From positions 29,687,435 to 29,751,434 of the forward strand of contig NC_089724.1 in assembly GCF_035083965.1 (NCBI RefSeq): a stretch of 64,000 nucleotides of DNA. The letters run 5' to 3'. Below, piece after piece: positions 1 through 27,710 of the stretch. The DNA comes from Branchiostoma lanceolatum. Taxonomy: Eukaryota; Chordata; Leptocardii; Amphioxiformes; Branchiostomatidae. Numbering within the stretch: position 1 is the stretch's first letter; every line of letters begins with the position of its first letter. The notes beneath the pieces were generated by a model. The model was not told the origin of the DNA. It saw only the letters and a list, made by a program, of their open reading frames with translations, and searched no databases. A program made the position numbers and the translations under genes.

Positions 1-263
1 GTGAGAAAATCGTGGCCAGAGTTTTTGTAGGCTCGTGAAACTAAAGGAATCATAGGACGGCACGGTTTTGCACGGTTTTGAAATCCTAAAAGTATGAATT
101 TTATTACGCAGATGTGCTAAACAAGGTTATTAAATGTCACCATCGATACCATAAAGATTTCAGCATTCTTTTATTTCCATTTTTTACCTAATATTGCTTT
201 GGTTGCCTTTAAAACACTTGATCTGAATAAAGAAAAAAGCATTACAAACTATTTGTGTTGCAG

Positions 264-340
264 ACCTGTCTGTGAAGACGTGCTGGAGGCTGAGTGTGGG
301 CTGGAATTGACCATGAAATTGGAAGATCTCGGATGTTTGA
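264..340 (+). CDS. Gene A exon: Cys-containing segment, no family recognised
   Basis: Follows the acceptor TTGTGTTGCAG. Only the phase-2 frame is open (reads PVCEDVLEAECG ... LEDLGCL). The donor at 341 is the weak GTTCGT, chosen because it gives phase 1, which the next exon needs. The mirror exon is 21075-20999 in gene B, where it completes the Cys-rich exon at 22376-22487. Confidence 0.6.
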
Positions 341-533
341 GTTCGTCGGTTTACCTTCCACCTCTATGATGATAGAAGTCAGGGCTAGATACAAAACACC
401 CCAGTTGCATGGCAGGCGCCTAACAGCAATGATGAAAAATAAAATGTAAAATTGTATACAACACTACAGTACTGAACAGTCAGTCATGTTTGGGGATACA
501 ACCATTGCAACATGCTAGCGTGAAGGTGTATCA

Positions 534-735
534 TTTTTACAGGTTTGCGTAGCAAAGCCTTTGTTGGATCCGTTGTCATGTGCGTTGGCCGCCATCTTGA
601 TTTTGTGACGTTGCAGGGTAGCCATACTATTTCATTGGGAGGGGTGTTCCCTCTATTTTTAACAAATCGGCACACAACTATCACACATTTAACTCAAACA
701 AAAATAAAAGTTCATTACCAATTCATATTTATAAA
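534..735. repeat. Interspersed repeat (about 205 bp), left arm
   Basis: Begins TTTTACAGGTTTGCGTAGCAA and contains GGATCCGTTG and GCCGCCATCTTGA. Related copies are at about 20599-20806 (mirror) and 27711-27915 (gene B intron). Confidence 0.65.
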
Positions 736-1276
736 AAGACCCCGTAGTCGCTACACTAACACAGCAAACCTGAAGAATATGTAGCACAAATACTAAATTC
801 TTCTTTTTTATTGCAACATAGGAAAAAACACATATTGATGCCGCACTCAAGCAAACACGCTTATTTAAGCGACATCACTAAACACAAGAAACAATGTGTC
901 GAAGTATGAAACACTAACAGTACGGGTTTAATACAATAACCGAGGTGCAAAAGAATATAACAAAAACAAGACATTAGCTTTTTTATAAAAATGCTAAGTA
1001 TCCAATACATACAGGTGAGTTTAACAGATTAAAATTTGCATATTGAAATTTGAAGGTAACAAAGAAGATCCATTAAGCAAAATATGTACAAAACCATTAT
1101 CAGATAAAGTGCATCATTCTGTTTTCAATTGATAGAAATCCCCATGAAACGGATTCTACACCCATTCCTTGTCACATGCATCTGCACTTAGACACCTGTG
1201 CAACTCCTGGGCAACTCATGCATGTAATATATCTTCCATTTGAAAAGGATTGTCATTTTAAATTTTTGTCGTGTAG

Positions 1277-1387
1277 AAATCGACAGCCAGTTCAGCCCGT
1301 GCGGGGATGGGGACGTGTACCATGATAGTCAGACTTGTGACGGCTCGGAAGCCTGCTCAACTGGGGAGGACGAGGCACACTGTGACG
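1277..1387 (+). CDS. Gene A exon: four-Cys LDLa module
   Basis: Phase 1-1 exon of 111 bp with acceptor GTGTAG and donor GTAAGG. It encodes CGDG ... TCDGSEACSTGEDE ... C. The SxGEDE calcium-type acidic motif is present. Cysteines I and III of the usual six are absent, which removes a disulfide pair (I-III) as a unit. It differs from its mirror 20024-19914 by about three bases. Confidence 0.85.
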
Positions 1388-1442
1388 GTAAGGCTTCTCC
1401 GGGCACATTCGTAGACAAACTCAGGACAAGGTTGATGCTAAT

Positions 1443-1965
1443 GCGCCGTGTGGCGCAAGTGGTAGAGCGCGCGACTGTCAAACAATGGGACCCGAGATTG
1501 ATCCCTGGCTGTGCCCAGAGACATGTCCGAACTTGCGCCCCGACGTTGTGCCCTTGGGAAAGGCACTTGACACAAATTTTCTCACCTCATTCAGGTGTAA
1601 ATGAGTACCTAGCTCATCCAGGGTTAGAGACGTTAAATGGAGGTTTAATGTGGCTCTCCCGTGTTTGGGGAGAGCCACACCCCGCAAAGGTAAAAGAAGC
1701 CACCACACCTTTCGAAAAAGAGTAGGGGCATGCCCCGGTATGCGATGGTCCAAATCCTTATGTCTGGAGTTAGTGATTCACTACAAATCACCCGGATGGA
1801 GGCCTGGCGAACCTCCGTCTCGTATCAGCCATACGGTGATTTACACCATTCACCCGGACGGGAGATCAGGAGCATCCCCGTCTCGTTTGACAGCCAAAGA
1901 AATGGCATGTCACCCCGTAAAAAGGGCGGTATAAGCGCGTCGTAGCGAATGCACGCCGACTGATG
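1443..1965 (+). mobile_element. tRNA-derived SINE, left arm
   Basis: The head resembles a tRNA promoter (GTGGCGCAAGTGGTAGAGCG, then GATTGATCCC near box B). The body is shared with copies near 59.7 and 60.8 kb: TGCCCTTGGGAAAGGCACTT, a GTGTTTGGGGAGAGCCACAC block, and AAAAAGAGTAGGGGC. It lies in a gene A intron. The mirror copy is at about 19335-19858. Confidence 0.75.
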
Positions 1966-2170
1966 ATGATGACAGTGTACCCAAGCAAGTGCCAGAGAAA
2001 TCGACAGTTCAATGTATGAATGCTTAAACCTTATAATTCTGCTCAATATTGTTCTTGAACCTAGCCTTCACTCTCTTCACTCTTCAACCAAATTATCATC
2101 AACATAAAGGCGGACTTGAAATGAAAAGATGTGAGCCACTCACATATCCTGCACTCTGTGTTTTCTTAAG

Positions 2171-2284
2171 AGTGTGCGATGGAATGTCTGAGAGACTCGG
2201 GTGACCCCTGCATTCCGAGAGGGTGGATCTGTGATGAACTAGACGACTGTCTGGATGGGAGGGACGAACGAGGGTGTGTGCTAG
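2171..2284 (+). CDS. Gene A exon: LDLa module
   Basis: Phase 1-1 exon of 114 bp, acceptor TTCTTAAG, donor GTAGGT. It encodes a six-Cys LDLa reading ECAMECLRD ... CIPRGWICDELDDCLDGRDERGC. The acidic Ca-site segment DCLDGRDE is present. Mirror exon: 19132-19019. Confidence 0.88.
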
Positions 2285-2510
2285 GTAGGTGCATGTTGGA
2301 CTATTAGACTATGTTGGACTATTAGCTAGGGAGGCGTCCAGGCGTCGTATGGACATTCTGTACAAAAAAATTAAAGAAATAGACGCCCTCTTTTGCAGAA
2401 GGACGCCTAAAAGACACACTGTTCTCCTGGTAATTACATGCACGCTACACAAAGGGCTTTTTCTTAGATTGTTGCAATGCTTTAACAGTGCTGTGTACTT
2501 TTCATGACAG

Positions 2511-2627
2511 GAGTACCCAAAAACTGCTTTTTCACCTGCCACAACAACGTCACGTGTCTGCCGACAAGTCAGCTGGGTGACGGACATCACGACTGTTCTG
2601 ATGGCGAGGACGAAAGACCCAGTGACA
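2511..2627 (+). CDS. Gene A exon: LDLa module lacking cysteines IV and VI
   Basis: Phase 1-1 exon of 117 bp, acceptor CATGACAG, donor GTGAGT. It reads NCFFTCHNNVTCLPTSQLGDGHHDCSDGEDE. Cys IV is replaced by Gly and Cys VI is missing, so the IV-VI disulfide pair is lost together. Mirror exon: 18791-18675. Confidence 0.85.
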
Positions 2628-2650
2628 GTGAGTCACGACTGTAATACATT

Positions 2651-2853
2651 TACTGTAAATGCATTTAAGTTCGCGTGGTTTTATTTTGCGCTAAGGTGAA
2701 AATGGAGTGTTCGAGGTGGTTTTAAGCTAGCGGCAGCGCTATAGTCACATACTGCTACAACATTGGACAAAAACGTTTTCGATGACTTTAAGTTCGCAGA
2801 GAAACGGTCGCCACGAACATAAAACAAACGCGAACATTTCTGCATTTACAGTA
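2651..2853. mobile_element. TA-flanked MITE (GTTCGCGGTGG family), left arm
   Basis: Begins TACTGTAAATGC and ends GCATTTACAGTA, with internal repeats of 'GGTGGTTTTAAG'. The TA ends suggest Tc1/mariner-type insertion. It is immediately downstream of the exon at 2511-2627. The mirror copy is at 18449-18651. Confidence 0.75.
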
Positions 2854-4674
2854 CACTGTTTGTATGACAGGTTAAGTGTATCATATTGTGTTTAAAATTA
2901 AGGCATCTCAAGACGTAATAGGTCTTTTCAAATTAAAAGTACATTTGGATGCCAACAAACATACTGGTTCTTTTATTTCCTCTTCAGATAGTCCCTTTTC
3001 GAATTCCCTAGGAATGACTTCCCTTATAATTACCACAGTGTGGTAACGGTTCCCTAAATACTATTAATAATAATCTTTATTGCAGATTTATATGCCCAGA
3101 GGCCTAAAATGCATCTATGACCACCACACAACACGTGGTTTAATGGGTGTAAAATGGCAAGCATGAGGCACTAAGATCCTACATTCTAATACTTAATGCA
3201 ATGAATTAAAACGCTACATACTAAATGTTAATCTATACACCTAATAGTGTATTTTTGGAAACATAATTTCATGTTATCTCCACAATATACTAGTATACAT
3301 TCGTCCATGACATATCAACAGTTGAAATTTAAACTGTTCACATATTGTACCTTTCATGAGCTTACAAGACTACACAATGTAATTTTTTTTTAAATCTAAT
3401 AAAGTGCAGTGCATTAAAAGTCAAGCTTTTTTTTTCTAATTAAGAGTCAACCCGGCCGGTCCATTGCATGATCTTTGTAGTATGGAAACATTGAAAATTC
3501 CTACATGATATGTACGACATATCTTGCTTGTTATGAAAGCAATACGTGTACACAAAGTGTATCCATGAGAGGGATTCAAATCTGCTTGAATCAGTTATTA
3601 ATGAAGAAAGTTTTCTTTGGCAAATTTGGAATCAGTTTATAATGCAGATGTGGTGATTAAATGTGTTTGGCTGTTAAGTCGAGTTCTTGAATTATTGACA
3701 TCTCACTGCGTGAAAACTCAGATTTCCGGTCCTTTCCGAGCCTGTGCACGTCCGTTAAAATTGGAGTGGGCAGGAAGTGTGAAGAGTTTTCCGGGCCCGG
3801 CGTGTGCGTGCCGGAAAACCCCGGGGTTTTTCTGCACAGTCGCGTGCGCGTTGAATCCCAGGTCTTGCACACTCGCGTGTCACCACGCCGGGTAGATAAC
3901 AATAAGCTTTAATTCATGCATTATAAGCCACGGTGTGTGAATTACACGGAAAGGATCTAAAACTGCTGTGACTAGTTGTTGGACACTAATGCCAAGGCCT
4001 GTTACACATGCACACATTTTCAGTTATAGTTAAAGCGAAAGGCCAAAATCTATGGCTAATTAAGGTTTCATCTAGCATGATTTGAATTGTTATCCATGGA
4101 AGGGACAAGAGTTTTATCAAATTTTCCATCAGATGTATATGATAGTCAAGCTTTACATTGCATTCTTTATTAAAATGTGTATTCATGACTGAGCGTTCAA
4201 TTCTTTTTTTTCTATATTTATTTTAAGCTTGCTTTTATTTCATTTTGTTCTAGAACAGGAAAAAAGAAGTCGCAAAAATCGACTTATAAACTTTATTGTG
4301 TTTTGGTACTATACAATTCAGAGGAGAAACACAGCAGCAACAAACTAGATCATACATAAACATGCGAGCATTGTTAAACATGGCGTCGTGTGCCGCGCGT
4401 CCCCACCATTGTTTATGGACGGCTAAGAAACAGCAAGGAGGTTTTATATTCAAAACCTTCTTGGTAACAGCCGAACTGCGAAATACTAGTAGAACAGAAC
4501 CGACCAAAATGCGAATAACCCCAAGTGAAACCCTAATGCATGGGTAGATTCTGGATATATTCGACATTTGATATTTCATGTATTTGGATTAGGTCTGAGC
4601 GCCCGACCAAGCAGGCACTAGCATTAAAATTTTCCAGCTATCCGTCAATAATTTTTGTATCAAAGGTTCTATTG

Positions 4675-5229
4675 CATGCCCGTAGCCAGGATTTTGAATG
4701 GGGGGGTTCTTTTTAATTTTTAAGGGACCAGCGAGCGCCGTAGGCACGAGACGAGCGCCGCAGGCGCGAGCTTCCTACGGGGGTCCGGGGGTATGCCCCC
4801 CCGGGAAATTTTAAAATTTGAACCTTCTGATATGGCATTTCCTGTGTTTTTGAGAGGATTTCAAAGGAAGAAATCAGAGACAAAGTTCGCAGTTTTTCTA
4901 GGATTTCAGCTCCGTTGGTGATACAAATAGACCCACCTTAAAAAAAACTTTGGACGTTAAAAAGTGGACCCTTGAGCGTTTCAATTTCTAAGAATTGAAC
5001 CTTCTGAAAGGGCATTTCCTGTGTTTTTGAGAGAATTTCAGAGGAAAAATCAGAGACAAAGTTTTTTCTAGGATCCTAGCCTCAGTGGTATTGCTGGTGA
5101 TACAAATAAGTCCACCTTGAAAAAAATCTTGAACATCAAAAAGTGGACCTTCAAGCCTGTGAAAGTGGACCTTCAAGCCAATGGGGGGGTTCGTCCGAAC
5201 CCCCCGAACCCCCCCTGGCTACGGGCATG
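4675..5229. mobile_element. Nested MITE with CATGCCCGTAGCCAGG termini
   Basis: A 555-bp element with perfect terminal inverted repeats of 16 bp or more (CATGCCCGTAGCCAGG and its complement) flanked by a 5-bp duplication TATTG. Inside are two tandem diverged copies of a unit of about 175 bp (from about 4820 and about 4995), both reading GAACCTTCTG ... GGCATTTCCTGTG. No ORF of transposase type. Confidence 0.8.
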
Positions 5230-6575
5230 TATTGCAAGCTTGAATAATAATGCAGCTGACCGCGAGTATGACAATTTCATAGTGCTTCGAGGATTGGCGC
5301 AGATAGAGCTGATAGCTTGGAGTACACGAAAGCTAGCCTGCCCGTAACCATGACGGCTTTCGGGGATTTCACCCATATAGATCTAGATCTTTATCCTGCT
5401 TCTTCTGACATCCTATCGTTCCAATCAATATTTCTGATACAGGCCCCGTAAACCAACTACAGGCGCATGTTAAAGGACCATTTGACATGATTTGAATTAT
5501 TCTCAATGAAAAGTAAACACGAGTCATCTGTAAGATACAAGCGTGCATAATGCTATAAGATGTGTATTGGAATGTCTGTCGTGGTGTCCATGTTAATTGT
5601 CTATTTTTGTATATTTTTCCTGTAAAAAGAAGGAGTTGAAAATACACAGAATACTACTACAATGTAGTGCGTACTTTTGTTCCTAAAATTCAGTCTAGAG
5701 TGGTATAATTGTGTATGCATGGTAGAAAGAAGGAGCCTCAAATTGTCAAAACAAAGACAAAACACGAAACAATCAGTATCGCGCATCACCTGAGAATTAC
5801 AGCGATGTAACTTATATATATGTAGCCCCCACCCCAAATGCAGGGGGTAGGGAAAACCAAGAAAGAATTTGTAATTTTGCAAGATCTAAACAGAGATGAA
5901 GGATAACAGCACATTAGTTGCAATGATTACACTCGTATTGCAGAAATTGAGAGGGTTTACTCCCCAGCTGACAAAAAGGCGATCATGGTCAAAACTGACC
6001 GACGGAGGCCGTATATATAACCTATATAATGATAATGGCCTCTTGTGAAAAAAAAAAATTGTGAGTGTGGCTTGCAATCCATGCTGGATATACAATCATG
6101 TATTTGGCGTTATTTGAACTGCTCAAGGGCAAGACCGCAATTATATTATTGCTACAAACTACACACAATGATGACCGGTTGTTTTGATGCATAGGGGATA
6201 GCTTTGAAATGTACCGGGGAGGGGGCAAATTAATTGCAATAGTCTGTGTTAAAATAAAACGAACTTGTGTGGTCTGTTGTGGTTTCACATCGGAGACTTC
6301 TTTGAGTCGAACAAGTAAATAACGTGCATTTCTACGTACTGTTAGCCCGTAGACACGGAAGTTTATTGTTGTACAAGCGTGCATCTCAAATAAAACACTG
6401 AATAATTACAATAAAAGTCTTGACGAGCACGTGGTATTTCACGTGGTCAGCCAATTGCAATTCACTTAGTATATGCTCTGAAAAGAACAGCCAATCAACG
6501 CCCGGGTCACTTTTTTCAAATCTTTTAGTTGGCACACGTATCCCAGATGAGCACTGCCCGACTTTGTGTGTGGAC

Positions 6576-6802
6576 TAGCCCGGGTCCCAGTCTCTACGGG
6601 TCGGCTTGGGTGTGTTTTACCGGGCCCAGTCTACTAAATTGACCCGTCTTAGCTGATCATGACATTTCACAGCCACCGTAGTTTTGCCACCATGGGAGGG
6701 AGCTAAGTACCCTCGGGGCGGGCTAATCTGTCTGGGTGGACGGGCATTACTCCCGGCGCCAGAGAGAGACCGGGCGCTCCCGACGGTATGGTTTCCAGGC
6801 TA
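6576..6802. mobile_element. TAGCC-family MITE, copy 1
   Basis: A 227-bp element from TAGCCCGGG to CCAGGCTA, flanked by TGTGTGGAC at 6567-6575 and 6803-6811. It shares internal sequence with the copy at 24264-24506 (CGGCTTGGGTGTGTTTTACCG). Confidence 0.7.
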
Positions 6803-6811
6803 TGTGTGGAC

Positions 6812-7020
6812 TAGCCTGGAAACCATACCATCGGGAGCTCCGCGGTATCTCTGCGGCGCTGGTAGTGATACCTGCCCGCCCAGTGAGAATTCTGCGCACG
6901 GGACGACTTTACGGGCTTGGATCAATTAGCTCGGTCTACGGAGAAGCAAAACTGACAGAAACGGATCAGTGGCAGTGCATAGCAGACTAAGCCGTTCCGT
7001 AGAGACTGGTGACCAGGCTT
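6812..7020. mobile_element. TAGCC-family MITE, copy 2
   Basis: A 209-bp element from TAGCCTGGAAACC to GACCAGGCTT, flanked by TGTGTGGAC (6803-6811) and TGTGTGGAT (7021-7029). It sits head to tail with copy 1 and shares its 9-bp flank. The junction (6781-6834) folds into a long hairpin because the facing termini are complementary. Confidence 0.7.
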
Positions 7021-8715
7021 TGTGTGGATATGTGTTCTCCGCTCCCTGTCCCCTTTGCCAGGAATAGGCCGCTGAGCCACGGCGCCGGGAATACTGAAAG
7101 CTTTGGGTCGTGTTTCTATATCAATATTGGTAACTTTCGCGACCTGGACGGTCAGAGGCAACAACCTACGAGTTCATCTGACGCGAGACCAAGCGGGCTC
7201 ATGTGACTTTGATGTTTGTCTGCTGGGATTATCTGCCTTTTTATCTGAAGCATCTGGATGGAAAGGTGTAGGAATGTCAGCATCACGGAGACCCACACTG
7301 AGAACTTTGTTTCATTTGACCTGAGCGACTGGGACCCTGAGCCGTCAAGATATAGGAAGGAACACACTCTACCACAAAATACAAACAGTGGTATTCGTGG
7401 ATACGAAAAACAAAAATGAAAGTTTAATCACCATTTTGAACGAATAAAAGCATGTTTTCAGCGTTTTGGGCCGGCGAGCGGAAAGCGTATGGGGAAGATG
7501 GGGGGGGGGGGATTTGCTTGGGTTGGGTCGAGTACAGTAGCGGCAACGCTAATTTCAATTACAATAGGTCATTTTGGCGGCAAAACCTGGCCGGGTCAGA
7601 CCTGGGAGGATAATTAGGTGATAATTAGGTGATAATTGCCGCTAAATTATGCAGGTACTATCGATGTTCGGCGACAGTCGTGTTGACTGTGCAGGTCTGC
7701 ATCGAAATTTCCCGCCAGCTGTGCGAGAATTTGCAGGGTGCTTCCACGTCCTGCACAGAAAGTGGTGCATATCCGGTATTTCCCAGGTCGGCACGGGTCC
7801 CGTGCAGAAGAGCTGTGCAGGTCAGCACGGCCTGGAGATTCACGGAAAACTCGAATTTGCAGGCACGTGAAACATGATTTCCTCCCCGGAAATTCGGATT
7901 TCCATGCAGTGTGTATTCTATCGAATGTACATACTTGATCAACCTGTTAATGTTTGTGGGAGGGGGGTGGAGTAATTGAAAACTTCACTGCTCCCCTCCC
8001 CCCAAGGACAAAAGACTGATTCTGCCATTGTGTAAGATCTTATCTTTACTCTAAAGTTATTTAGACATTAAAGCGCAAGACTTTGAAGTTTATAAAGGTT
8101 TGATTCATTCATTCATGCCCCCCCCCCCCCAGGGTCACTTTGCAGTAGAACGATGTTGAGGTCACAGAACACAGTTTTTATCCGCGACCCCTATGACGCG
8201 GGTACACAAAATATACGGCTAGATTCTTGAAAGCCTGGTAGAAAGCCGCATGTTGGAGGCAGCTAAGTGTAAACTATGCTGCGTGGTAGTATTGTGTCGA
8301 CCTTGAGTCTGTATGATTTGGATTGTGAAGGTTTTCCAAAGCGTGTATCAATGCGCCTCATGACGTAACTGTCTTTTCGGGTGAGCCGGCTGCAGTTTTT
8401 TTTACATCCGCAGAGGGGCATTTCAAAGAGGGCGTCAAAACGAGGTACGCCGACAGAATTTTTTATTTGTTGAGTCTTTTGTAGGTTGTACCCTAAACTC
8501 AAACATATTCGTTTTTCGTGTTTCTCAAGTGCACCGCACTATAATTTTTACCAGTCAGAAGCCAGTCACCTTGTAGCCCTTAAGTATAGAAATCCCCATA
8601 GGCCGAAAACTGTGTTCTGCTACCTTGACCAGAATAGATTGTAAGAATTGCGACAGCTAGCAAGGTCTATCACGGAAACGTGTACATTCAAATGAACACA
8701 AATCTGTTGCTACAG

Positions 8716-9102
8716 TTGAAGATGCACTGAGACGCAGGTGGGGCTCCTGCAGCTACAACTGCGCGTCCATCTACGGTAACGCGTCGTGCGTTCCCGACGC
8801 GTTCAGCTGCGACGGTGGCGCGGACTGCTTGGAGGAAGAGGACGAGCAGGGCTGTGAAGGCGTCGCACCTACGACAGTTGATGATTGCCCGACGTTCTAC
8901 TGCGGCCTTCCCGGCTCTCCGGACCGTACGTACTGCGTGCAAGGTCATCTGATCTGTGACGGATACCCGGACTGTGCGGCAGGGGAGGACGAGCAGGGGT
9001 GCGGCAACGCGGACGGCGTGTCCACTCAAGCCAGCACCACGCTGACAACCGGCCTGACCGCAGAGCCAACAAGTGGTCAAGGATCGCTCGAAGATCAAAC
9101 AG
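8716..9102 (+). CDS. Gene A exon: two LDLa modules plus Ser/Thr linker
   Basis: Phase 1-1 exon of 387 bp (129 codons), acceptor TTGCTACAG, donor GTACTT. The first LDLa ends DCLEEEDEQGC and the second DCAAGEDEQGC. A roughly 30-residue Thr/Ser-rich stalk follows (starting VSTQASTTLTTG), a likely O-glycosylated spacer. It is more GC-rich than its surroundings. It is identical to mirror exon 16803-16417. Confidence 0.9.
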
Positions 9103-9132
9103 GTACTTATAATTCTCCTTAATAAGTTGCTG

Positions 9133-9310
9133 TTAATGCATTCAAGTTCGTGGTAAGTTTAATTAAAATTTCACCATAAGGAGAACATGGATTGTTTGCG
9201 GTGGTTTTAAGTTCACGATACCGCTATAGGTAGTATCACATACTGTACAGTAATGGAAACAAAACGTTTCGCGGTGGTTTTAAGTTCGCGGTGAAGCTGT
9301 CACTGCCCGA
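9133..9310. mobile_element. Degenerate GTTCGCGGTGG-family MITE
   Basis: Diverged copy with 'GCGGTGGTTTTAAGTTC' twice. It lies downstream of the exon ending at 9102. Its mirror lies at about 16209-16386. Confidence 0.6.
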
Positions 9311-9660
9311 CATTAAACCACCTCAAAGACGTCATCAAAGGAGTTTAATAATTTTCATACTTTCCTCAGAAAAGAGGTTTGAGACATGTTACCCAATAAC
9401 AAGCTAACGCTAAAAGTTAACATTCATATATACCCTGTATAGTACATTTTTACAAAGATCAATAATGTTATGCATCACTGATTAAAACTACATTCGAAAA
9501 TATCCAAATACTTACAAAGGTTTACAATATAACTATTAATTAAACCCGTCAAGAAGGCCTAGTGTAGTATATTAATAACTTATCAATAAAGGTTGTCGTT
9601 TTTATCACAATGCTAAATAAGTGCTGTTACTATTTATTTTCCTTCTTTATTTCCTTACAG

Positions 9661-9758
9661 GGCTCTACGCAGAGAGCCATGGTCCCAGGGACCAGGCCGT
9701 TATTTGGATAACAGCCGCTGCACTTGGCGGTCAGATTATCTACCGCCTGGCTTTCTGA
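9661..9758 (+). CDS. Gene A last exon: hydrophobic C-terminus
   Basis: Follows the acceptor TTCCTTACAG in phase 1 and ends at TGA 9756-9758. The tail is about 32 residues. Its last 20 are mostly hydrophobic (AVIWITAAALGG onward) and end right at the stop. This fits a GPI-anchor signal or a transmembrane segment with no cytoplasmic tail. It is identical to gene B's last exon at 15858-15761. Confidence 0.75.
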
Positions 9759-12360: not shown

Positions 12361-13158
12361 CAACCGAAAATTTCAATATCTTAAAGGCATCCAGAGCATC
12401 TTATGAGGCTTGAAACTTGAATGAAAGACTCCAATTAGTCATTCCTACACATAGTAAGTTTCAATAACACTATACCATTAAATATCGACATTAAATGAGC
12501 AAAGATACGAAGTCGTTGTGTGGTGAGAACTGATAGAAAATCCAAGCCCATATAGACTGATCCTGACTGTCCATCACAATTAGCGGTTCGACCAATGAGA
12601 GAGTGACTGCATACCCGTCAAATATTTGCATTTTTGTGTTCTAATTTTGCATTTCTACGTTTTGACGGAGATGGGAGGGGCAATGTTATCGGTTTATTTA
12701 CACTAGGCACGTGAATCTAATAGATCACAATGTAGCTTATTTTTGTGCCGCTTTTGAGCACTTCTGGTAAGAAATCCGCACGCAAATGTGGTAAACAGTG
12801 GCATCAAATGTCAATTTCATAAAGATTACAGCAACTAGAATATCTCCAGTTTTCAAGCCTCATAAAATGCTCTGGGTGCCTTTAAAGCCAAGATTTCCCA
12901 TAAAACTGAAAATGGGTCAACTTTGTGGCGATATATCTTCATAATTACTTCTAGCTATAAGAAATATTTCCTTGAGTGACTATAGTGACTGTACGTTGAT
13001 GAAGGTTAGACATCCATGTAATAATATACGCCAAAAATTGTTACTCAAGCAAATGGGTAAAATTTTGAAATAATCAGACGTTTCAGACAGGATCCGCTAT
13101 CTTCCATCAGTGACTAACGAAAGATCTGGCAGAACTAGGTTTTATACAAAACTCTGAG
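12361..13158. repeat. Palindrome spacer (loop)
   Basis: These 798 bp separate the two arms and are not repeated in either arm. The arms end at the same bases (CATTAGCATA on the left, its complement on the right). Most of the spacer is a MITE at 12385-12881. No coding sequence is visible. Confidence 0.9.
12385..12881. mobile_element. piggyBac-like MITE in the palindrome spacer
   Basis: A 497-bp element flanked by TTAA at 12381-12384 and 12882-12885. Its terminal inverted repeats start AGGCAYCCAGAGC and pair over about 32 bp with two mismatches. TTAA target duplication is typical of piggyBac transposons. There is no transposase ORF, so it is non-autonomous. Confidence 0.75.
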
Positions 13159-15760
13159 TATGCTAATGACTCAATTAGCTCCTGTTGTTTTAGGAGCTAA
13201 TGCTAATGAGGAGGTGACTGTAGAATGCCTTTTTCATATTGACGCCTCTTTCTGCTCAATTCGGCGTGTATAACAAATGTCTTTCTAACAAGTCTATTAT
13301 AAACAGGGATACAGCAAAAATCATCATGCACATTAATATGACAGTACGCATTTCATCCCGATATTACCACGGCACGCCCGCCTACACATCTCATGATCAG
13401 CACGGGACTTTAAAAAAACATGTAGCTTTGAAAAGATCTGCTCTATTTATATAAGAAGGAAAATTACCTTAAAGTTTACGCCACGAATTGAATAGACAGT
13501 AAGTGTCATCTGTAACAATCGGATATGCAAAGTGCATACTATAAGCAAGGTTATACTTACTGCATGTTGACTGAGTACGTGTCTACATGGTCCTATGATA
13601 TATCTACTCTCGTGTCCAATGGCCCACTTATGTACTAAATCTGAAATTTTTCTCCCGCTTTGTGCTTCTATCAAACTACCTTCCCAAAACCGTTAACATG
13701 CAAAACGACACGTGTGTCATGGCCAATTTAGGAGCATATCGAATTTCAGTTTCAGGTCATTTCGTATTTACAGGCGCAACTTTTCAAGTCGGTTATGTTG
13801 TAGAAACTTTTGTCCAAATTTAGCACAAAAGCATGGTTGATAGAACTCAATATGATATCTTTATCATAATAGCAGAAAACTACAGCATCATTGTGTAGAG
13901 TAGACTATACAGACAAGTCCTTACCTGAGATTCTAGTTGTCGTGTCTTCTTCTTCGGAACCGAAAGGTCAAAAGAGACCGTGTGATGTGTTCGTTAAAAG
14001 TTATTCTAGCTGTGTATGTGTGTGGATACCTTTCAGGCGTTTCCCACTTAGTTGTAGGGGTGTTATGCATTTTCTGTGGTATTTTAGGGATTCAGTTTAA
14101 GTGTTATGTAGTGTACGTAGATTGATTTAGTATGATATTTGACTTTTTCCTTTGAGCGTCAGGTTAGCAGAAAAAAGGGACTCTGTGAACGACTTAGACC
14201 TCATGCGATAGGTCACAGGTCACACCAAAAACAGAAGACACCTTACAAGTATTTATTCATTCGTATTTACATTATGCTGTTTATTTAAGTTACTTATATT
14301 CGTAATTTATGATTATTTCTGGCTTTCTGTCAACTACATCCAGATCATGTTTTCAATTATGTTGACCTCTGACCTCTCTCGTTCATCTCTCGTTTATTTT
14401 TGATTTCACCACATTTGTTTTGTTGAATTCTTAGCTAACCAATTGTATAGTTTTTGTTTCATTTTATGTATTTGTATAGGGACTCTAGGAAGAATAGTGC
14501 ATATTGTATATCACTAATGGATATCTTAATAAAACAAACAAACAAACAAACAAACAAGTATTCACATGCTGGCATAAGTTTATTCTGATTGACAATACAA
14601 AATCCCCTTAATGTCATATTTTAAAACCTTTCAGCTATAGATTGAATGATGTTCTAAAAATTCTTCATGCGTTTTGGCAATCGAAGGAAAAGGTCGTCCT
14701 CCCATAAAAATAACTGATTAAAAATTCTTACTGTCATGGGTTTAGCTAAAGAGAATATAATAGAAATATTACAGTTTGATCTTTAATACCTAGTGTTGAA
14801 AGAATCATGGGGCTTCTTTTTTTGCAGTGAAATACAGTGATAAAAATGTACTATAACATTTCGGATAGCTTAGATTATATCATATTAGACCTTGAAAAAT
14901 TAATATGTCATCTGCACGAAGCTTAACTTCAACAATCCATGCGTACCCGTTGGTTGCATACTCTGCTGCTTCAGTACTCTTTTTTTGCGGTTATCTCACA
15001 ATTATTCTAATAATTTTACCCTAGATTCTCAAGACAAATATTTACACATTACAAAAAGATTTGTAGACCGCAAGGCCTGTGAAAAAAAAAGTTCCGTTTC
15101 CGGTTATAATATACGACCGAACCTAGAAAAAATCTGCTCACCCTAGCCTTTTTTTTCGGTCGAGCAAGTGCTATAAAATTTTCAATCTGACATCTGAGTG
15201 ATGAACTATAACAGAATTCCAAGTAGTCTTGCAAATGTTCATTTCTATGTTCGTAGATGAAGGCTAAGTTTGTATAAAAATGTGTAGTAAACATTGTACT
15301 TCTACAATATGATGCAAGTTCTACCAATGTCTTTTTTTGCATTGTTAAACTGTATTTATTGGATCAGTTCGGCCGGAATCTAAACAGAAAAAGAATAATC
15401 CCTACCTACCAACCCTAACTTTTTTATCAAGACCGTAATCAAAAACACAGCATTTTTTTCTTGGACCTAAGCTGAAATCCTTTAGTGATTAATTCCACCA
15501 TCATCAACTTTAAGACATATCCAATGTTAGATTTAGACATATTCGAAACATGATACATTCCAAGCAATAGTTCGGACAAGGTAGAACAAGGGCAGCAGAT
15601 TTCAAGTTAACTGATTCATATATTTCCCACACGATTCATTAACATTGACCATGTTACTTGTTTCCAGAAAATCTAATCCTTCATACTCTTTCTTTGATCT
15701 TATGGGGTATTCCCACACAATGTTTCGTGCCCTACAGCTGAGACCTAGCTAATGCATTGA
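13159..15760 (-). other. Gene B 3' flank and inner palindrome arm
   Basis: Mirror of 9759-12360. It holds a likely 3' UTR with AATAAA (minus strand) at 15355-15360 and no supported gene. Confidence 0.6.
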
Positions 15761-15858
15761 TCAGAAAGCCAGGCGGTAGATAATCTGACCGCCAAGTGCA
15801 GCGGCTGTTATCCAAATAACGGCCTGGTCCCTGGGACCATGGCTCTCTGCGTAGAGCC
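15761..15858 (-). CDS. Gene B last exon: hydrophobic C-terminus
   Basis: Exact mirror of 9661-9758. It ends the gene with a hydrophobic tail that stops right at TGA, compatible with a GPI-anchor signal or tail-less transmembrane helix. Confidence 0.75.
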
Positions 15859-16416
15859 CTGTAAGGAAATAAAGAAGGAAAATAAATAGTAACAGCACTT
15901 ATTTAGCATTGTGATAAAAACGACAACCTTTATTGATAAGTTATTAATATACTACACTAGGCCTTCTTGACGGGTTTAATTAATAGTTATATTGTAAACC
16001 TTTGTAAGTATTTGGATATTTTCGAATGTAGTTTTAATCAGTGATGCATAACATTATTGATCTTTGTAAAAATGTACTATACAGGGTATATATGAATGTT
16101 AACTTTTAGCGTTAGCTTGTTATTGGGTAACATGTCTCAAACCTCTTTTCTGAGGAAAGTATGAAAATTATTAAACTCCTTTGATGACGTCTTTGAGGTG
16201 GTTTAATGTCGGGCAGTGACAGCTTCACCGCGAACTTAAAACCACCGCGAAACGTTTTGTTTCCATTACTGTACAGTATGTGATACTACCTATAGCGGTA
16301 TCGTGAACTTAAAACCACCGCAAACAATCCATGTTCTCCTTATGGTGAAATTTTAATTAAACTTACCACGAACTTGAATGCATTAACAGCAACTTATTAA
16401 GGAGAATTATAAGTAC

Positions 16417-16803
16417 CTGTTTGATCTTCGAGCGATCCTTGACCACTTGTTGGCTCTGCGGTCAGGCCGGTTGTCAGCGTGGTGCTGGCTTGAGTGGACA
16501 CGCCGTCCGCGTTGCCGCACCCCTGCTCGTCCTCCCCTGCCGCACAGTCCGGGTATCCGTCACAGATCAGATGACCTTGCACGCAGTACGTACGGTCCGG
16601 AGAGCCGGGAAGGCCGCAGTAGAACGTCGGGCAATCATCAACTGTCGTAGGTGCGACGCCTTCACAGCCCTGCTCGTCCTCTTCCTCCAAGCAGTCCGCG
16701 CCACCGTCGCAGCTGAACGCGTCGGGAACGCACGACGCGTTACCGTAGATGGACGCGCAGTTGTAGCTGCAGGAGCCCCACCTGCGTCTCAGTGCATCTT
16801 CAA
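16417..16803 (-). CDS. Gene B exon 17: two LDLa modules plus Ser/Thr linker
   Basis: Exact mirror of 8716-9102. 387 bp, phase 1-1. Identical protein. Confidence 0.9.
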
Positions 16804-18448
16804 CTGTAGCAACAGATTTGTGTTCATTTGAATGTACACGTTTCCGTGATAGACCTTGCTAGCTGTCGCAATTCTTACAATCTATTCTGGTCAAGGTAGC
16901 AGAACACAGTTTTCGGCCTATGGGGATTTCTATACTTAAGGGCTACAAGGTGACTGGCTTCTGACTGGTAAAAATTATAGTGCGGTGCACTTGAGAAACA
17001 CGAAAAACGAATATGTTTGAGTTTAGGGTACAACCTACAAAAGACTCAACAAATAAAAAATTCTGTCGGCGTACCTCGTTTTGACGCCCTCTTTGAAATG
17101 CCCCTCTGCGGATGTAAAAAAAACTGCAGCCGGCTCACCCGAAAAGACAGTTACGTCATGAGGCGCATTGATACACGCTTTGGAAAACCTTCACAATCCA
17201 AATCATACAGACTCAAGGTCGACACAATACTACCACGCAGCATAGTTTACACTTAGCTGCCTCCAACATGCGGCTTTCTACCAGGCTTTCAAGAATCTAG
17301 CCGTATATTTTGTGTACCCGCGTCATAGGGGTCGCGGATAAAAACTGTGTTCTGTGACCTCAACATCGTTCTACTGCAAAGTGACCCTGGGGGGGGGGGG
17401 GGGGGCATGAATGAATGAATCAAACCTTTATAAACTTCAAAGTCTTGCGCTTTAATGTCTAAATAACTTTAGAGTAAAGATAAGATCTTACACAATGGCA
17501 GAATCAGTCTTTTGTCCTTGGGGGGAGGGGAGCAGTGAAGTTTTCAATTACTCCACCCCCCTCCCACAAACATTAACAGGTTGATCAAGTATGTACATTC
17601 GATAGAATACAGATGTCAATAATTCAGGAACTCGACTTAACAGCCAAACACATTTAATCACCACATCTGCATTATAAACTGATTCCAAATTTGCCAAAGG
17701 AAACTTTCTTCATTAATAACTGATTCAAGCAGATTTGAATCCCTCTCATGGATACACTTTGTGTACACGTATTGCTTTCATAACAAGCAAGATATGTCGT
17801 ACATATCATGTAGGAATTTTCAATGTTTCCATACTACAAAGATCATGCAATGGACCGGCCGGGTTGACTCTTAATTAGAAAAAAAAAGCTTGACTTTTAA
17901 TGCACTGCACTTTATTAGATTTTAAAAAAAATTACATTGTGTAGTCTTGTAAGCTCATGAAAGGTACAATATGTGAACAGTTTAAATTTCAACTGTTGAT
18001 ATGTCATGGACGAATGTATACTAGTATATTGTGGAGATAACATGAAATTATGTTTCCAAAAATACACTATTAGGTGTATAGATTAACATTTAGTATGTAG
18101 CGTTTTAATTCATTGCATTAAGTATTAGAATGTAGGATCTTAGTGCCTCATGCTTGCCATTTTACACCCATTAAACCACGTGTTGTGTGGTGGTCATAGA
18201 TGCATTTTAGGCCTCTGGGCATATAAATCTGGAATAAAGATTATTATTAATAGTATTTAGGGAACCGTTACCACACTGTGGTAATTATAAGGGAAGTCAT
18301 TCCTAGGGAATTCGAAAAGGGACTATCTGAAGAGGAAATAAAAGAACCAGTATGTTTGTTGGCATCCAAATATACTTTTAATTTGAAAAGACCTATTACG
18401 TCTTGAGATGCCTTACTTTTAAACACAATATGATACACTTAACCTGTG

Positions 18449-18651
18449 TACTGTAAATGCAGAAATGATCGCGTTTGTTTTATGTTCGTGGCGACCGTTT
18501 CTCTGCGAACTTAAAGTCATCGAAAACGTTTTTGTCCAATGTTGTAGCAGTATGTGACTATAGCGCTGCCGCTAGCTTAAAACCACCTCGAACACTCCAT
18601 TTTCACCTTAGCGCAAAATAAAACCACGCGAACTTAAATGCATTTACAGTA
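18449..18651. mobile_element. TA-flanked MITE (GTTCGCGGTGG family), right arm
   Basis: Mirror of 2651-2853 with a few base differences. Same TACTGTAAATGC termini. Confidence 0.75.
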
Positions 18652-18674
18652 AATGTATTACAGTCGTGACTCAC

Positions 18675-18791
18675 TGTCACTGGGTCTTTCGTCCTCGCCA
18701 TCAGAACAGTCGTGATGTCCGTCACCCAGCTGACTTGTCGGCAGACACGTGACGTTGTTGTGGCAGGTGAAAAAGCAGTTTTTGGGTACTC
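18675..18791 (-). CDS. Gene B exon 16: LDLa module lacking cysteines IV and VI
   Basis: Mirror of 2511-2627. Phase 1-1, 117 bp. It keeps the DCSDGEDE acidic motif. Confidence 0.85.
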
Positions 18792-19018
18792 CTGTCATGA
18801 AAAGTACACAGCACTGTTAAAGCATTGCAACAATCTAAGAAAAAGCCCTTTGTGTAGCGTGCATGTAATGACCAGGAGAACAGTGTGTCTTTTAGGCGTC
18901 CTTCTGCAAAAGTGGGCGTCTATTTCTTTAATTTTTTTTGTACAGAATGTCCATACGACGCCTGGACGCCTCCCTAGCTAATAGTCCAACATAGGCTAAT
19001 AGTCCAACATGCACCTAC

Positions 19019-19132
19019 CTAGCACACACCCTCGTTCGTCCCTCCCATCCAGACAGTCGTCTAGTTCATCACAGATCCACCCTCTCGGGATGCAGGGGTC
19101 ACCCGAGTCTCTCAGACATTCCATCGCACACT
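19019..19132 (-). CDS. Gene B exon 15: LDLa module
   Basis: Mirror of 2171-2284. Phase 1-1, 114 bp, six cysteines. At least one synonymous difference (ATC/ATT for Ile). Confidence 0.87.
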
Positions 19133-19334
19133 CTTAAGAAAACACAGAGTGCAGGATATGTGAGTGGCTCACATCTTTTCATTTCAAGTCCGCCTTTATG
19201 TTGATGATAATTTGGTTGAAGAGTGAAGAGAGTGAAGGCTAGGTTCAAGAACAATATTGAGCAGAATTATAAGGTTTAAGCATTCATACATTAAACTGTC
19301 GATCTGTCTGGCACCCTTGGGTACACTGTCATCA

Positions 19335-19858
19335 TCATCAGTCGGCGTGCTTTCGCTACGACGCGCTTATACCGCCCTTTTTACGGGGTGACATGCCATT
19401 TCTTTGGCTGTCAAACGAGACGGGGATGCTCCAGATCTCTCGTCCGGGTGAATGGTGTAAATCACCGTATGGCTGATACGAGACGGAGGTTCGCCAGGCC
19501 TCCATCCGGGTGATTTGTAGTGAATCACTAAATCCAGACATAAGGATTTGGACCATCGCATACCGGGGCATGCCCCTACTCTTTTTCGAAAGGTGTGGTG
19601 GGTTCTTTTACGTTTGCGGGGTGTGGCTCTCCCCAAACACGGGAGAGCCACATTAAACCTCCATTTAACGTCTCTAACCCTGGATGAGCTAGGTACTCAT
19701 TTACACCTGAGTGAGGTGAGAAAATTTGTGTCAAGTGCCTTTCCCAAGGGCACAACGTCGGGGAGCAAGTTCGGACATGTCTCTGAGCACAGCCAGGGAT
19801 CAATCTCGGGTCCCATTGTTTGACAGTCGCGCGCTCTACCACTTGCGCCACACGGCGC
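19335..19858 (-). mobile_element. tRNA-derived SINE, right arm
   Basis: Mirror of the SINE at 1443-1965, in the matching gene B intron, with scattered substitutions. Its presence in both arms shows it inserted before the inverted duplication. Confidence 0.75.
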
Positions 19859-19913
19859 ATTAGCATCAACCTTGTCCTGAGTTTGTCTACGAATGTGCCC
19901 GGAGAAGCCTTAC

Positions 19914-20024
19914 CGTCACAGTGTGCCTCGTCCTCCCCAGTTGAGCAGGCTTCCGAGCCGTCACAAGTCTGACTATCATGGTACACGTCACCATCCCCGC
20001 ACGGACTGAACTGGATGTCGATTT
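19914..20024 (-). CDS. Gene B exon 14: four-Cys LDLa module
   Basis: Mirror of 1277-1387. Phase 1-1, 111 bp. One visible amino-acid change (EIDIQF for EIDSQF). It lacks cysteines I and III. Confidence 0.85.
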
Positions 20025-20598
20025 CTACACGGCAAAGATTTAAAGTGACAATCCTTTTCAAATGGAAGATATATTACATGCATGAGTTGCCCAGGAGCTG
20101 AGCAGGTGTCTAATTGCAGGTGCGTGTGACAAGGAATGGGACCGGTGTAGAATCCGTTTCATGTTGATTTCTACAAATGGAAAACAGAATGATGCACTTT
20201 ATCTGATAATGTTTTTATGCATTTTTTGCTTAATGGATTTTCTTTGTTACCTTCAAATTTCAATACGCAAATATCATCTGTAACTCACCTGTATGTATTG
20301 GATACTAGGCGTTTTCATAATTAAGCTATTACGTGTTTTTGCTATATGACTGTATAGTTGTTTCTCTTGCACCTCCGTTACTGTATTTAACCTGTACTGT
20401 TAATGTCTCATACTTCGAGACATGTTTTGTTTCTTGTGTTTAGTGATGTCGCTTAGATATACGTGTTTGCTTGAGTGTGGCATAACTATGTGTTTTTTTC
20501 TTAAGTTGCAATGGAAAACTAGAATTAAGTATTTGTGCTACATATTCTTCAGGTTTGCTATGTAAGTGTAGCGATTACGGGGTATTTTTATAAATATG

Positions 20599-20806
20599 AA
20601 TTGGTATTGACGTTTTCTTTTTATTTGAGTTAAATGTGTGATAGTTGTGTGCCGATTTGTTAAAAATAGAGAGAACGCTAGCGACCCCCAAAAACACCCC
20701 TCCCAATGAAATGGTATGGCTACCCTGCGACGTCACAAAATGAAGATGGCGGCCAGCACACATGCCAACGGATCCAACAAAGGTTTTGCTACGCAAACCT
20801 GTAAAA
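20599..20806. repeat. Interspersed repeat (about 205 bp), right arm
   Basis: Mirror of 534-735 with differences that include about 15 bp of extra sequence near AGCGACCCCC. Confidence 0.65.
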
Positions 20807-20998
20807 ATGATACACTTTCACGCTAGCATGTTGCAATGATTGTATCCCCAAACATGACTGACTGTTCAGTACTGTAATGTTGTATACAATTTTACATTAC
20901 ATTGGATCATTGCTGTTAGGTGCCTGCCATGCAACTTGGGTGCTTTGTATCTAGTCCTGACTTCTATCATCATAGTGGTGGAACATGAACCAACGAAC

Positions 20999-21075
20999 CC
21001 AAACATCCGAGATCTTCCAACTTCATGGTCAATTCTAGCCCGCACTCAGCCTCCAGCACGTCTTCACAGACAGGT
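20999..21075 (-). CDS. Gene B exon 13: Cys-rich segment, continued
   Basis: Phase 2-1 exon, 77 bp, acceptor GGTTGCAG. It reads PVCEDVLEAECGLELTMKLE then DLGC. The donor is the weak GTTCGT at 20998. It is the first gene B exon inside the palindrome; mirror 264-340. Confidence 0.6.
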
Positions 21076-22076
21076 CTGCAACCCAGACAGTTTGTAAGAC
21101 TTTTTTCTTTATTCAGATCAAGTGTTTTAAAGGCAACCAGAACAATATGAGGTCAAAAAAATTGAAAAAAAAAAATGCTGAAATCTTTATGGTAGTATCT
21201 TTTCCTTAGCAACGGTTTCCATAGAAACAAGCCAGATTCTTTCAAGGTTCCCAAAAGGAAAACTCTCCTGTCGTTTGTGACTTTCTCCAAGTTTCATGTC
21301 ATTTGGACAGGTATCACAGAAGCTATGCTGTTTTCTTCTCAATTCATGGCATAACTACCTCATTTGCATAAATTTGCATAAAGAGCTCTAGAACCACGAT
21401 GTCCCACCAGGACCATAGAACAACATAACTAAAAATGATCTAGAGTCATCAAGCTATCATTCTATGATACTGAACTAACTATATAAAGGGTGTGATACGT
21501 TTGTCAATTTCTAGGCCTCTTCTGAGAATTTCCTCCTGGACTACATTTACTTACCTTGTTTAGCACATTTGCGTAATAAAATTAATACTTTTAGGAATTT
21601 AAAACCGTGGTAAACCGTGCCGTACTATGATCCCTTTAGTTTCACGAGTCTACAAAAACTCTGGCCACGATTTTCAGTGAGTTCTCACATCACAACAACG
21701 TCGTATTTTTGCATCATGGACATTGCTATACATTTTGATAGTGTTGTTTCAACTAATCCTTATAGAAATAACTACATAAATTGACTTTCAAACTCCAATT
21801 TTTCAGATCCTAATATTGCTTGGGGTTCCTTTAAGTGTTGTTTTCTGATTTGCCTGCTAGCAGTCAGAGCTCACGAATTAATTTGCATTCACGTCTTATT
21901 AACAAACGGATGATATTTAGCTTATTCATCTTTCTGTCAGTTTCGGCTATCCACCTAAAGAACAATATCTAAATTGAATTGTCCTTATATCATATTGTCA
22001 GTTTAACAGATAAACAGCTATTCTAAGTGCACACTTACTTACAAACATGTTACTAACATGACAATCTCAAGAACCA

Positions 22077-22290: not shown

Positions 22291-22375
22291 TATTGTCCCC
22301 AAAAAAATCAGGGAAAAGTCTGGCAACAGCGTAATTTTTCAGAGTACCATTTATGCAAAGGAAAGTTGTATTTAC

Positions 22376-22487
22376 TTGTCTCCGCCGTTATAGCGTTGTG
22401 GGACACATCCGTCAAAAGCCTGACAGAAATTTTCCCTTGGGCGACATGCCTCGTCACAGAAGACCTCGTTAGATGCACAGCCGGAAC
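22376..22487 (-). CDS. Gene B exon 12: Cys-rich segment, family not recognised
   Basis: Phase 1-2 exon, 112 bp, acceptor CCTTACAAG, donor GTAAAT. It reads SGCASNEVFCDEACRPRENF then CQAFDGC. Six closely spaced cysteines without an LDLa acidic motif. It continues in exon 13 and lies just outside the palindrome. Confidence 0.7.
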
Positions 22488-23009
22488 CTTGTAAGGAATG
22501 TCAAATTGAAGCCGATGATATAACCACATTCATGTGACTAGTAGACTATGTTTTAGGTTCTGTTGGTTTGTAGGTGAGTGGAAAGCAAAACACCCCTTGG
22601 CGAACCTTCAGTACTTGAAGTACTAAAAGTATATGTATAATTTCAGGACATTTTTAATAAATCAGATTTTACTGTCGTACTGAATCATCGCTTCCAAGTA
22701 CTTATGCTTCTTTTACTCTTCAATTACTTTCAGTACAGTACTGAAATGTATTTGGCAGTTATGATATTTACTGTCGCCTCAGCTCAATTACTGTCAATTA
22801 GATGCTTTTATAGACTGACCAATCAGAGCATTTACCACTTAATCAACCTGTGATTGGTCTGTTTTTGTACTTCAAACGACAGTTGCTCCAAATGAAGATG
22901 AAACCAGCCAGGTAACATGTCTGATTATCTCTCTTTGAGTGAAATGTGTCTATCAAAGCCCCACGACAGTTTTGTCACATTGACTAATGAAATAAATTAG
23001 ACTTCTGAC

Positions 23010-23148
23010 CATATTTGACGAGAATCTCGATCCTCAGTGCGACCCGATGGTGGAAGGTGAGCGGGTAGAAGCGAGTGTAGAGTGCAAAAGTTGGGTTGTC
23101 CAAGATGTTGCGAGCGTAGCGGTAGCTGTTGCTGTTCCCTTGGAACAC
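23010..23148 (-). CDS. Gene B exon 11: F5/8C domain 2, part 3
   Basis: Phase 0-1 exon of 139 bp, the same length as exon 8. Acceptor CGTTTCAG. It begins VFQGNSNSYRYARNILDN and ends ALRIEILVKYG. The donor GTCAGA at 23009 was chosen because it restores phase 1; an earlier GT would not. Confidence 0.8.
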
Positions 23149-23342
23149 CTGAAACGAAAAATATTGTACTGTACACCTGGTGACGAGGATGCCTTGTTGT
23201 CAGAATGTTATATGGAATCTAAGAAAAATATATCGAACAGACTGAATTACTTTGTCAATAGTACAACACTGGGCCCGAACAGAATTTTCTATCACCATTC
23301 TATTTCTTGGAAACTGTTTTTAGAACGTGAGGTTGAACTGAC

Positions 23343-23492
23343 CATTTCTTCACCGTCCCCGGTGCTGTTTGTGTACATTGTCCATTCTCCAACCACAGAG
23401 AACGCCAGCTTGTAGGATGTGACCCAGTAGTCCTGGTTGTAAGCTCCCTGGGTGATGACACCGGCAACTTCGTACACCTTGTCATGCTTAAC
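23343..23492 (-). CDS. Gene B exon 10: F5/8C domain 2, part 2
   Basis: Phase 0-0 exon, 150 bp, acceptor ACTCCAG, donor GTCAGT. It reads VKHDKVYEVAGVITQGAYN ... YWVTSYKLAFSVVGEW. Same intron positions as domain 1, so the two domains arose by duplication of a three-exon unit. Confidence 0.9.
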
Positions 23493-23758
23493 CTGGAGTG
23501 ACATTAGGAGAAAGCTCACTTCACTTCATTGATGAAAATTGCCAATATTTTTATTTGGTTGTTATGTTGAAAAGAGTCTTAAGTCCATTTTTGTTGGAAT
23601 TTACAAAATAAGTTGCAAAAATACTCTTCTTAAATTCCAAGTCCAATGTCATGATGCAAAGCAAGGACATTTATCGTTGAAGACATTCACGTGTGACTAC
23701 CAGTTCCTAGAATATTCCTCAATCAGAGACTCTAGAAAGGTAACAAAACACGAACCTT

Positions 23759-23893
23759 CAAATTTTCGACGTCCACTGTACGTCTTGATCACGTGGTGTG
23801 ACCTAGTCTCGCGAGAAAATCTACACAAGTCTCGACCTCGTGCTCTCGCGAGACTAGGTCACTCACTAGGTCACAGTGGACGTCGAAAATTTG
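23759..23893. repeat. Foldback element carrying TCTCGCGAGA in both stems
   Basis: An inverted repeat in a gene B intron. 23759-23779 pairs with 23873-23893, and 23800-23816 pairs with 23844-23860. Each inner stem contains the self-complementary 10-mer TCTCGCGAGA (23807-23816 and 23844-23853). Confidence 0.8.
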
Positions 23894-27036: not shown

Positions 27037-27071
27037 TAAATGGGCTTATCCACTGTGTCACACTTCTGAGT

Positions 27072-27683: not shown

Positions 27684-27710
27684 CTGCAGTAAAAAAATAC
27701 ATAGTAAAGA

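What the first reader, a model, noticed from the sequence alone, without database searches (positions are those of the whole stretch)
1..21690. Giant inverted duplication creates a tail-to-tail pair of near-identical LDLa genes
Two arms of more than 8 kb of shared sequence, with a 798-bp spacer, each carry the 3' exons of the same multidomain gene. The pair is convergent, so transcripts reading past their ends would be complementary over several kilobases and could form long double-stranded RNA. The DNA could extrude a cruciform. An assembly artefact joining two haplotypes head to head is a serious alternative.
Basis: partly seen in the sequence, partly recalled or inferred. Interest (0 to 1): 0.78.

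Follow-up and report, generated by a model that had tools for sequence, protein, structure and literature searches.

The report
Lancelet inverted gene duplication, possibly gene-converted
A stretch of lancelet DNA holds two mirror-image copies of the end of one receptor-like gene whose inner halves are letter-for-letter identical, most likely because one copy overwrote the other, although a mistake in assembling this genome is not ruled out.

Summary
The inverted repeat is in the sequence: left arm 5-12361, right arm 13158-21675, spacer 796 bp; the arms reach the window edge, so their full size is unknown. Divergence falls stepwise toward the centre: 101/1080 (9.35%), 24/2360 (1.02%), 0/4464; the one inner difference is a poly-C length. 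The zero step ends at a 4.2-kb left-only insertion. The gene belongs to a lancelet LDLa + F5/8-type-C family, closest to Branchiostoma lanceolatum. The right gene runs about 33.9k to 15.8k on the minus strand; the left shows its last six exons, open. A separate B. lanceolatum record, P0121, equals the left copy at 123/123 residues of exons a-d but differs from the window's shared exons e-f at 23/161. I read this as a tail-to-tail partial duplication whose inner arms were homogenised by gene conversion (0.55); misassembly of the left inner arm is the main rival (0.33). Two alleles joined head to head fits poorly. The dsRNA and cruciform ideas rest on geometry alone. New member of a known kind.

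The parts
1..1314 (+). Outer left arm; 9.35% diverged from the right arm where measured (left 229-1314 vs right 19987-21110); runs to the window edge
1315..3703 (+). Middle left arm, 1.02% diverged from about 17612-19986
3704..7911 (+). Left-only 4208-bp insertion with imperfect inverted ends and no clear target-site duplication, in the intron between exons d and e; edge of the identical tract
7912..12361 (+). Inner left arm, 0 substitutions against 13158-17611; poly-C run of 13 vs 17
12362..13157 (.). 796-bp spacer holding a roughly 0.5-kb stretch bounded by 35-bp inverted repeats (12381-12415 / 12851-12885, 94%) next to TTAA; transposon-like
   Evidence: TTAA read by eye; no repeat library searched
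13158..17611 (-). Inner right arm
17612..21675 (-). Middle and outer right arm
264..340 (+). Left exon a; left-specific K codon at the a/b junction
   Evidence: ends placed by eye, donor weak (GTTCGT)
1277..1387 (+). Left exon b (LDLa); S where the right has I
2171..2284 (+). Left exon c (LDLa)
2511..2627 (+). Left exon d (LDLa-like)
8716..9102 (+). Left exon e (LDLa modules, Thr-rich tail)
   Evidence: start chosen by phase
9661..9758 (+). Left exon f, hydrophobic C-terminus and stop
15761..21075 (-). Right exons f (15761-15858), e (16417-16803), d (18675-18791), c (19019-19132), b (19914-20024), a (20999-21075, end by arithmetic)
22375..33932 (-). Rest of the right gene: LDLa array with a signal-peptide-like start (31751-33932), single LDLa exons (28270-29963), F5/8-type-C exons (within 22960-27911), exon 22375-22500
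   Evidence: exon ends approximate

Best explanation
A genuine local inverted partial duplication in a lancelet (most likely Branchiostoma lanceolatum) left a second, tail-to-tail copy of the 3' exons of an LDLa/F5-8-type-C gene beside the full gene. The arms aged to about 9% divergence but were partly reset by arm-to-arm gene conversion: an older tract over exons b-d (now 1% apart) and a recent one over exons e-f and the 3' flank (4.45 kb, no substitutions), whose outer limit is the 4.2-kb transposon-like insertion that only the left arm carries, a large heterology that would stop pairing or branch migration. Shown: arms, tiers, insertion at the step, open exons, and the switch of relationship to P0121. 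Inferred: that the copies are physically joined in the animal, that conversion rather than misassembly made the inner tract, the direction right to left, and the number of events. No function beyond concerted evolution of two gene copies is claimed.
For: Three-tier divergence: log-likelihood -469.5 for two change points, -494.7 for one, -642.4 for none. The identical tract ends at the insertion: last outside mismatch at 3687, 17 bp away, and none in 4464 columns inside. P0121 (B. lanceolatum, NCBI-sourced, 34.4-Mb contig, standing for a cluster of 7 sequences of which I saw only this one) agrees with the left copy at 123/123 residues in exons a(part)-d and with the right at 121/123, but differs from both at 23/161 in e-f (Fisher P 1.8e-6 left, 9.1e-5 right). 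Exons e-f evolve faster, so I calibrated on the 27 of 143 other listed proteins that aligned over enough of both halves: a-d/e-f mismatch ratio 0.42-1.29, median 0.85. At the median 15.0 a-d differences are expected, P(0)=3e-7; at the minimum 7.4, P(0)=6e-4. For the right copy's 2 differences P(<=2) is 4e-5 or 0.022. The closest relatives (P0004, P0021, P0122) give 0.42-0.45, so the weaker figures are the fairer ones. Against P0126 and P0004, P0121's e-f has 12 private residues and the window's 8, so both look like long-separated versions. The family is multi-copy: six listed records share one 25.7-Mb contig length. Precedent: inverted paralogue pairs in Caenorhabditis (PMC1803023, passages) and human palindrome P6, conversion tracts with mean minimum 2068 bp, up to 9023 bp (PMC3723533, passages).
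Against: No reads and no second genomic sequence of the locus. P0121 shows a left-type gene with its own e-f exons, which is also what a misassembly in the window would leave. P0121 may be an allele, a different paralogue, or a record from the same assembly as the window; none of this could be settled. For e-f the window is closer to P0126 (17 differences) than to P0121 (23). In B. floridae, allelic non-crossover tracts are predominantly under 200 bp (abstract, PMC12500494), far shorter than 4.45 kb. The insertion lacks a clear target-site duplication.
Confidence: 0.55

Rival explanations
1. Assembly chimera: the left locus is a separate real paralogue (P0121-type), and the assembler joined its outer part (up to the insertion) to a mirror copy of the right gene's inner arm, through fold-back or chimeric reads or a collapsed repeat.
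For: 0 substitutions in 4464 columns. P0121 keeps a distinct e-f. B. lanceolatum BraLan3 was built from PacBio RSII reads of N50 10,998 with Canu and purge_dups, and its authors report in-frame stops from PacBio indels (PMC9673378, passages), while the inner palindrome is 9.7 kb; whether the window is from BraLan3 is unknown. Fold-back reads are a documented long-read artefact (PMC12870357, passages). The right gene here has a frameshift and an in-frame TAA in its LDLa array.
Against: It needs two false joins (at 7911 and at the spacer). The TAA is not a simple indel: several bases differ from sister repeats (by eye). PMC12870357 saw virtually no fold-backs in PacBio HiFi, but tested only three PacBio samples and, in the passages I read, no RSII data.
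Confidence: 0.33
2. Two alleles of one locus assembled head to head.
For: Lancelets are highly heterozygous, and haplotypes assembled as separate loci are a known problem (PMC9673378, passages). The arms reach the window edge, so upstream exons on the left cannot be excluded.
Against: No tier matches 3.2-4.2%: 9.35%, 1.02%, 0.00%. P(0 in 4450) is 1.4e-62 at 3.2%, assuming independent sites at a uniform rate. P0121 starts inside exon a, hinting at a 5'-truncated copy, though automatic gene models are often short.
Confidence: 0.07
3. Recent inverted duplication with no conversion; the tiers reflect composite origin, the outer parts being older duplicates.
For: Inner arms identical; the family is multi-copy.
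Against: The three tiers are collinear and keep one gene structure in order; separate events would have to end at adjacent points.
Confidence: 0.05

Closest known systems
Inverted paralogous gene pairs with maintained palindromic arms in Caenorhabditis (PMC1803023, passages; e.g. the convergent pair at the HSP16 locus)
   Same: Paralogues in inverted orientation around a spacer, arm identity up to 100%, higher between arms than between orthologues
   Different: There the arrangement is shared by several species; here it is seen in one sequence, with only 3' exons of the left copy visible and a 4.2-kb insertion at the edge of identity
Human Y palindrome P6 with arm-to-arm gene conversion (PMC3723533, passages)
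   Same: Long inverted arms, high identity, multi-kilobase conversion tracts
   Different: About 8 kb of arm visible here, no link to a sex chromosome known, identity tiered, no population data
Fold-back inversions / inverted duplications in yeast (PMC10622511, PMC7467729; search listing only)
   Same: A possible origin for arms around a spacer
   Different: No ancestral junction available; origin not tested
Lancelet LDLa + F5/8-type-C proteins (P0001-P0031: 31 of 31 are Branchiostoma and carry PF00057 and PF00754; labels such as LRP1B, F8, SORL1 are the sources' own)
   Same: Domain order and C-terminus as in P0004
   Different: The right copy has a frameshift and a stop in its LDLa array

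Membership tests
Palindrome with arm-to-arm gene conversion | Two long inverted arms around a short spacer | tested here: met
Palindrome with arm-to-arm gene conversion | Tract of near-perfect identity with a sharp edge inside more diverged arms | tested here: met
   0/4464 vs 24/2360 vs 101/1080
Palindrome with arm-to-arm gene conversion | Arms closer to each other than each is to its orthologue or allele | tested here: inconclusive
   Holds for exons e-f against P0121 (0 vs 23/161), but orthology of P0121 is unproven and a misassembly gives the same result; in exons a-d the left copy is closer to P0121 (0/123) than to the right arm (2/123)
Palindrome with arm-to-arm gene conversion | Both arms physically joined in the genome | not testable with these tools
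   No reads; no genome held for this window
Head-to-head haplotype artefact | Arm divergence like allelic heterozygosity | tested here: not met
   against 3.2-4.2% (abstract, PMC12500494); local divergence can vary
Head-to-head haplotype artefact | Left arm continues as a full second copy | not testable with these tools
   The window starts inside the arm
LDLa / F5-8-type-C family | PF00057 and PF00754 domains with the family C-terminus | tested here: met
   Met for the right gene: PF00057 in the 338-aa C-terminal query and three array ORFs, PF00754 in 23292-23525; C-terminus aligned; further exons by tblastn. For the left copy only the C-terminal part is in the window

The most novel reading that the evidence does not exclude
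A palindrome in a lancelet, not known to be sex-linked, in which arm-to-arm conversion overwrote the whole 3' half of a receptor-like gene copy, is polymorphic within the species (if P0121 is an unconverted allele of the left copy), and is bounded by a transposon-like insertion acting as a conversion barrier: a system for measuring long-tract conversion in a highly heterozygous chordate.
Probability: 0.35. Interest if true: 0.45.

Novelty: new member of a known kind. Interest (0 to 1): 0.32.

Why it matters
If real, it is a clear case of palindromic gene conversion in a lancelet, with a natural heterology marking the tract end and a separate record that lacks the inner replacement. If an artefact, it warns that duplicated genes in lancelet assemblies can carry exons from the wrong copy.

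Tried and rejected
Rejected: structured RNA or tRNA explanations (Rfam at gathering score: 0 matches, ARAGORN: 0 genes). Uniform recent duplication (tiers). Long dsRNA as a normal product (read-through or ends in the spacer not excluded). DNA folding of the spacer plus arm ends (z -11.2, 20 shuffles) only restates that the arm ends are complementary.

My notebook entry put the e-f difference at about 10%; the count is 23/161, 14%. It also called P0121 a RefSeq record and linked assemblies to it; the listing says only that the source is NCBI/UniRef, so I withdrew that.

Papers: PMC12500494, abstract and section list. PMC9673378, PMC11907188, PMC1803023, PMC12870357, PMC3723533: passages. All others: search listings. 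Titles and abstract starts listed (10 of 10 papers; 12 of 220; 3 of 3) did not describe this locus; that is no proof that none does.
Full report
What is there. The window (64,000 bp, no N, 41% GC) contains a large inverted repeat. Arms 7912-12361 and 13158-17611 match over 4454 columns with no mismatch and four gap columns; 147-3703 and 17611-21194 match at 94.6%; 5-137 and 21543-21675 at 91.7%. The spacer is 796 bp. The left arm holds 4208 bp (3704-7911) that the right arm lacks. The only inner difference is a poly-C run of 13 vs 17. Because homology reaches base 5, the outer end lies outside the window.

Tiers. A change-point fit over 7904 aligned columns (the first 228 left bases, poorly aligned, were dropped) gives 101/1080 mismatches (9.35%), 24/2360 (1.02%) and 0/4464; log-likelihoods are -642.4, -494.7 and -469.5 for zero, one and two change points. 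The last mismatch before the insertion is at 3687, so the identical tract effectively ends at the insertion. The insertion's ends are imperfect inverted repeats without a clear target duplication. The spacer holds a stretch with 35-bp inverted ends beside TTAA; naming a transposon group for it would be recall, and I do not.

Genes. Splice-compatible exons a-f exist on both arms with open frames and the same stop. Across exons b-f (827 bp) the arms differ at 4 sites, one changing an amino acid; exon a adds K versus E at its junction. The right gene continues upstream through an exon at 22375-22500, F5/8-type-C exons, single LDLa exons and a 123-bp-period LDLa array with a signal-peptide-like start near 33.9 kb. 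That array has a 1-bp frameshift and an in-frame TAA, so the right copy may be damaged, mis-sequenced or spliced differently.

Relatives. A search with the right C-terminal region gave 146 proteins among 3461 candidates; of the 120 listed the first 31 are all Branchiostoma proteins with LDLa and F5/8-C domains. A second, with the last 338 residues, gave 24 among 1506 candidates. For exons a-d the best match is P0121 at 100%, against 93% for P0004 (both B. lanceolatum); the best from another species among the 30 rows printed is P0013, B. belcheri, at 78%. The window is therefore most likely B. lanceolatum. Which assembly it comes from is unknown.

Switch of relationship. P0121 (284 aa) equals the left copy in all 123 residues of exons a(part)-d, including both left-specific residues, and differs from the right at 2; in exons e-f it differs from the window's single shared version at 23/161. 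Exons e-f evolve faster in this family, so I took the 27 of the other 143 listed proteins that align over at least 118/123 and 150/161 residues: the ratio of a-d to e-f mismatch ranges 0.42-1.29, median 0.85 (gaps not counted). Under the least favourable ratio, which is also that of the closest relatives, 0 differences has probability 6e-4, and 2 or fewer 0.022. P0121's e-f and the window's carry 12 and 8 private residues against P0126 and P0004, and the window's e-f is closer to P0126 (17 differences) than to P0121 (23). So both versions look old, and in the left copy one seems to have replaced the other. The exchange point lies in the d-e intron, where the insertion sits. P0121 stands for a cluster of seven sequences; I saw only this one, and I cannot say whether it is an allele or another paralogue.

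Interpretation. A conversion from right to left arm explains the zero-divergence tract, its edge at a large heterology, and why P0121 lacks it; an earlier conversion explains the 1% tier, where P0121 is also close to the right copy. A misassembly that copied the right inner arm into the left locus explains the first and third points too, and cannot be excluded without reads. Two alleles joined head to head fits worse: lancelet heterozygosity is 3.2-4.2% (abstract, PMC12500494) and none of the tiers is near it, though local divergence varies. Against conversion stand the short (<200 bp) non-crossover tracts in B. floridae from the same abstract; for it stand the multi-kilobase tracts of human P6 (PMC3723533, passages) and fully identical inverted gene pairs in Caenorhabditis (PMC1803023, passages).

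Function. AATAAA motifs downstream of the left stop lie at 10159-11262, over 1 kb before the spacer; the spacer has two ATTAAA and one reverse AATAAA. Both mRNAs are same-sense copies. No call supports or tests a dsRNA role. The likely consequence is that two gene copies share identical 3' halves.

Verdict. Present in the sequence, tiered, and plausible as a convergent duplicate under gene conversion; ordinary in kind, with an unresolved assembly question.

Noticed in passing
31751-33932 (-): LDLa array of 123-bp units in what looks like one long exon, with a 1-bp frameshift near 32,775 and an in-frame TAA at about 32,108-32,110; possible damaged gene or sequence error.
   Followed up: partly
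46764-62417 (+): Apparent second multidomain gene: F5/8-C-like exon (weak tblastn match), LDLa exons, and by eye kringle-like and somatomedin-B-like exons (62220-62417 had no Pfam match; the kringle-like exons were not scanned).
   Followed up: partly
47969-48465: About 500-bp CTT-rich microsatellite.
   Followed up: no
1472-1760, 19541-19829, 59800-59983, 60500-60778: Dispersed repeat, 72-82% identical between the arm copies and the distal copies, with a tRNA-like stretch by eye; SINE-like, but ARAGORN found no tRNA.
   Followed up: no
34751-36981 and 40125-44998: Several local direct repeats, four of them at 84-89% identity.
   Followed up: no
12310-12361: The inner arm end carries a small hairpin (9-bp stem, by eye) and a repeated TCATTAGCAT; possible trace of how the inversion formed.
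   Followed up: no
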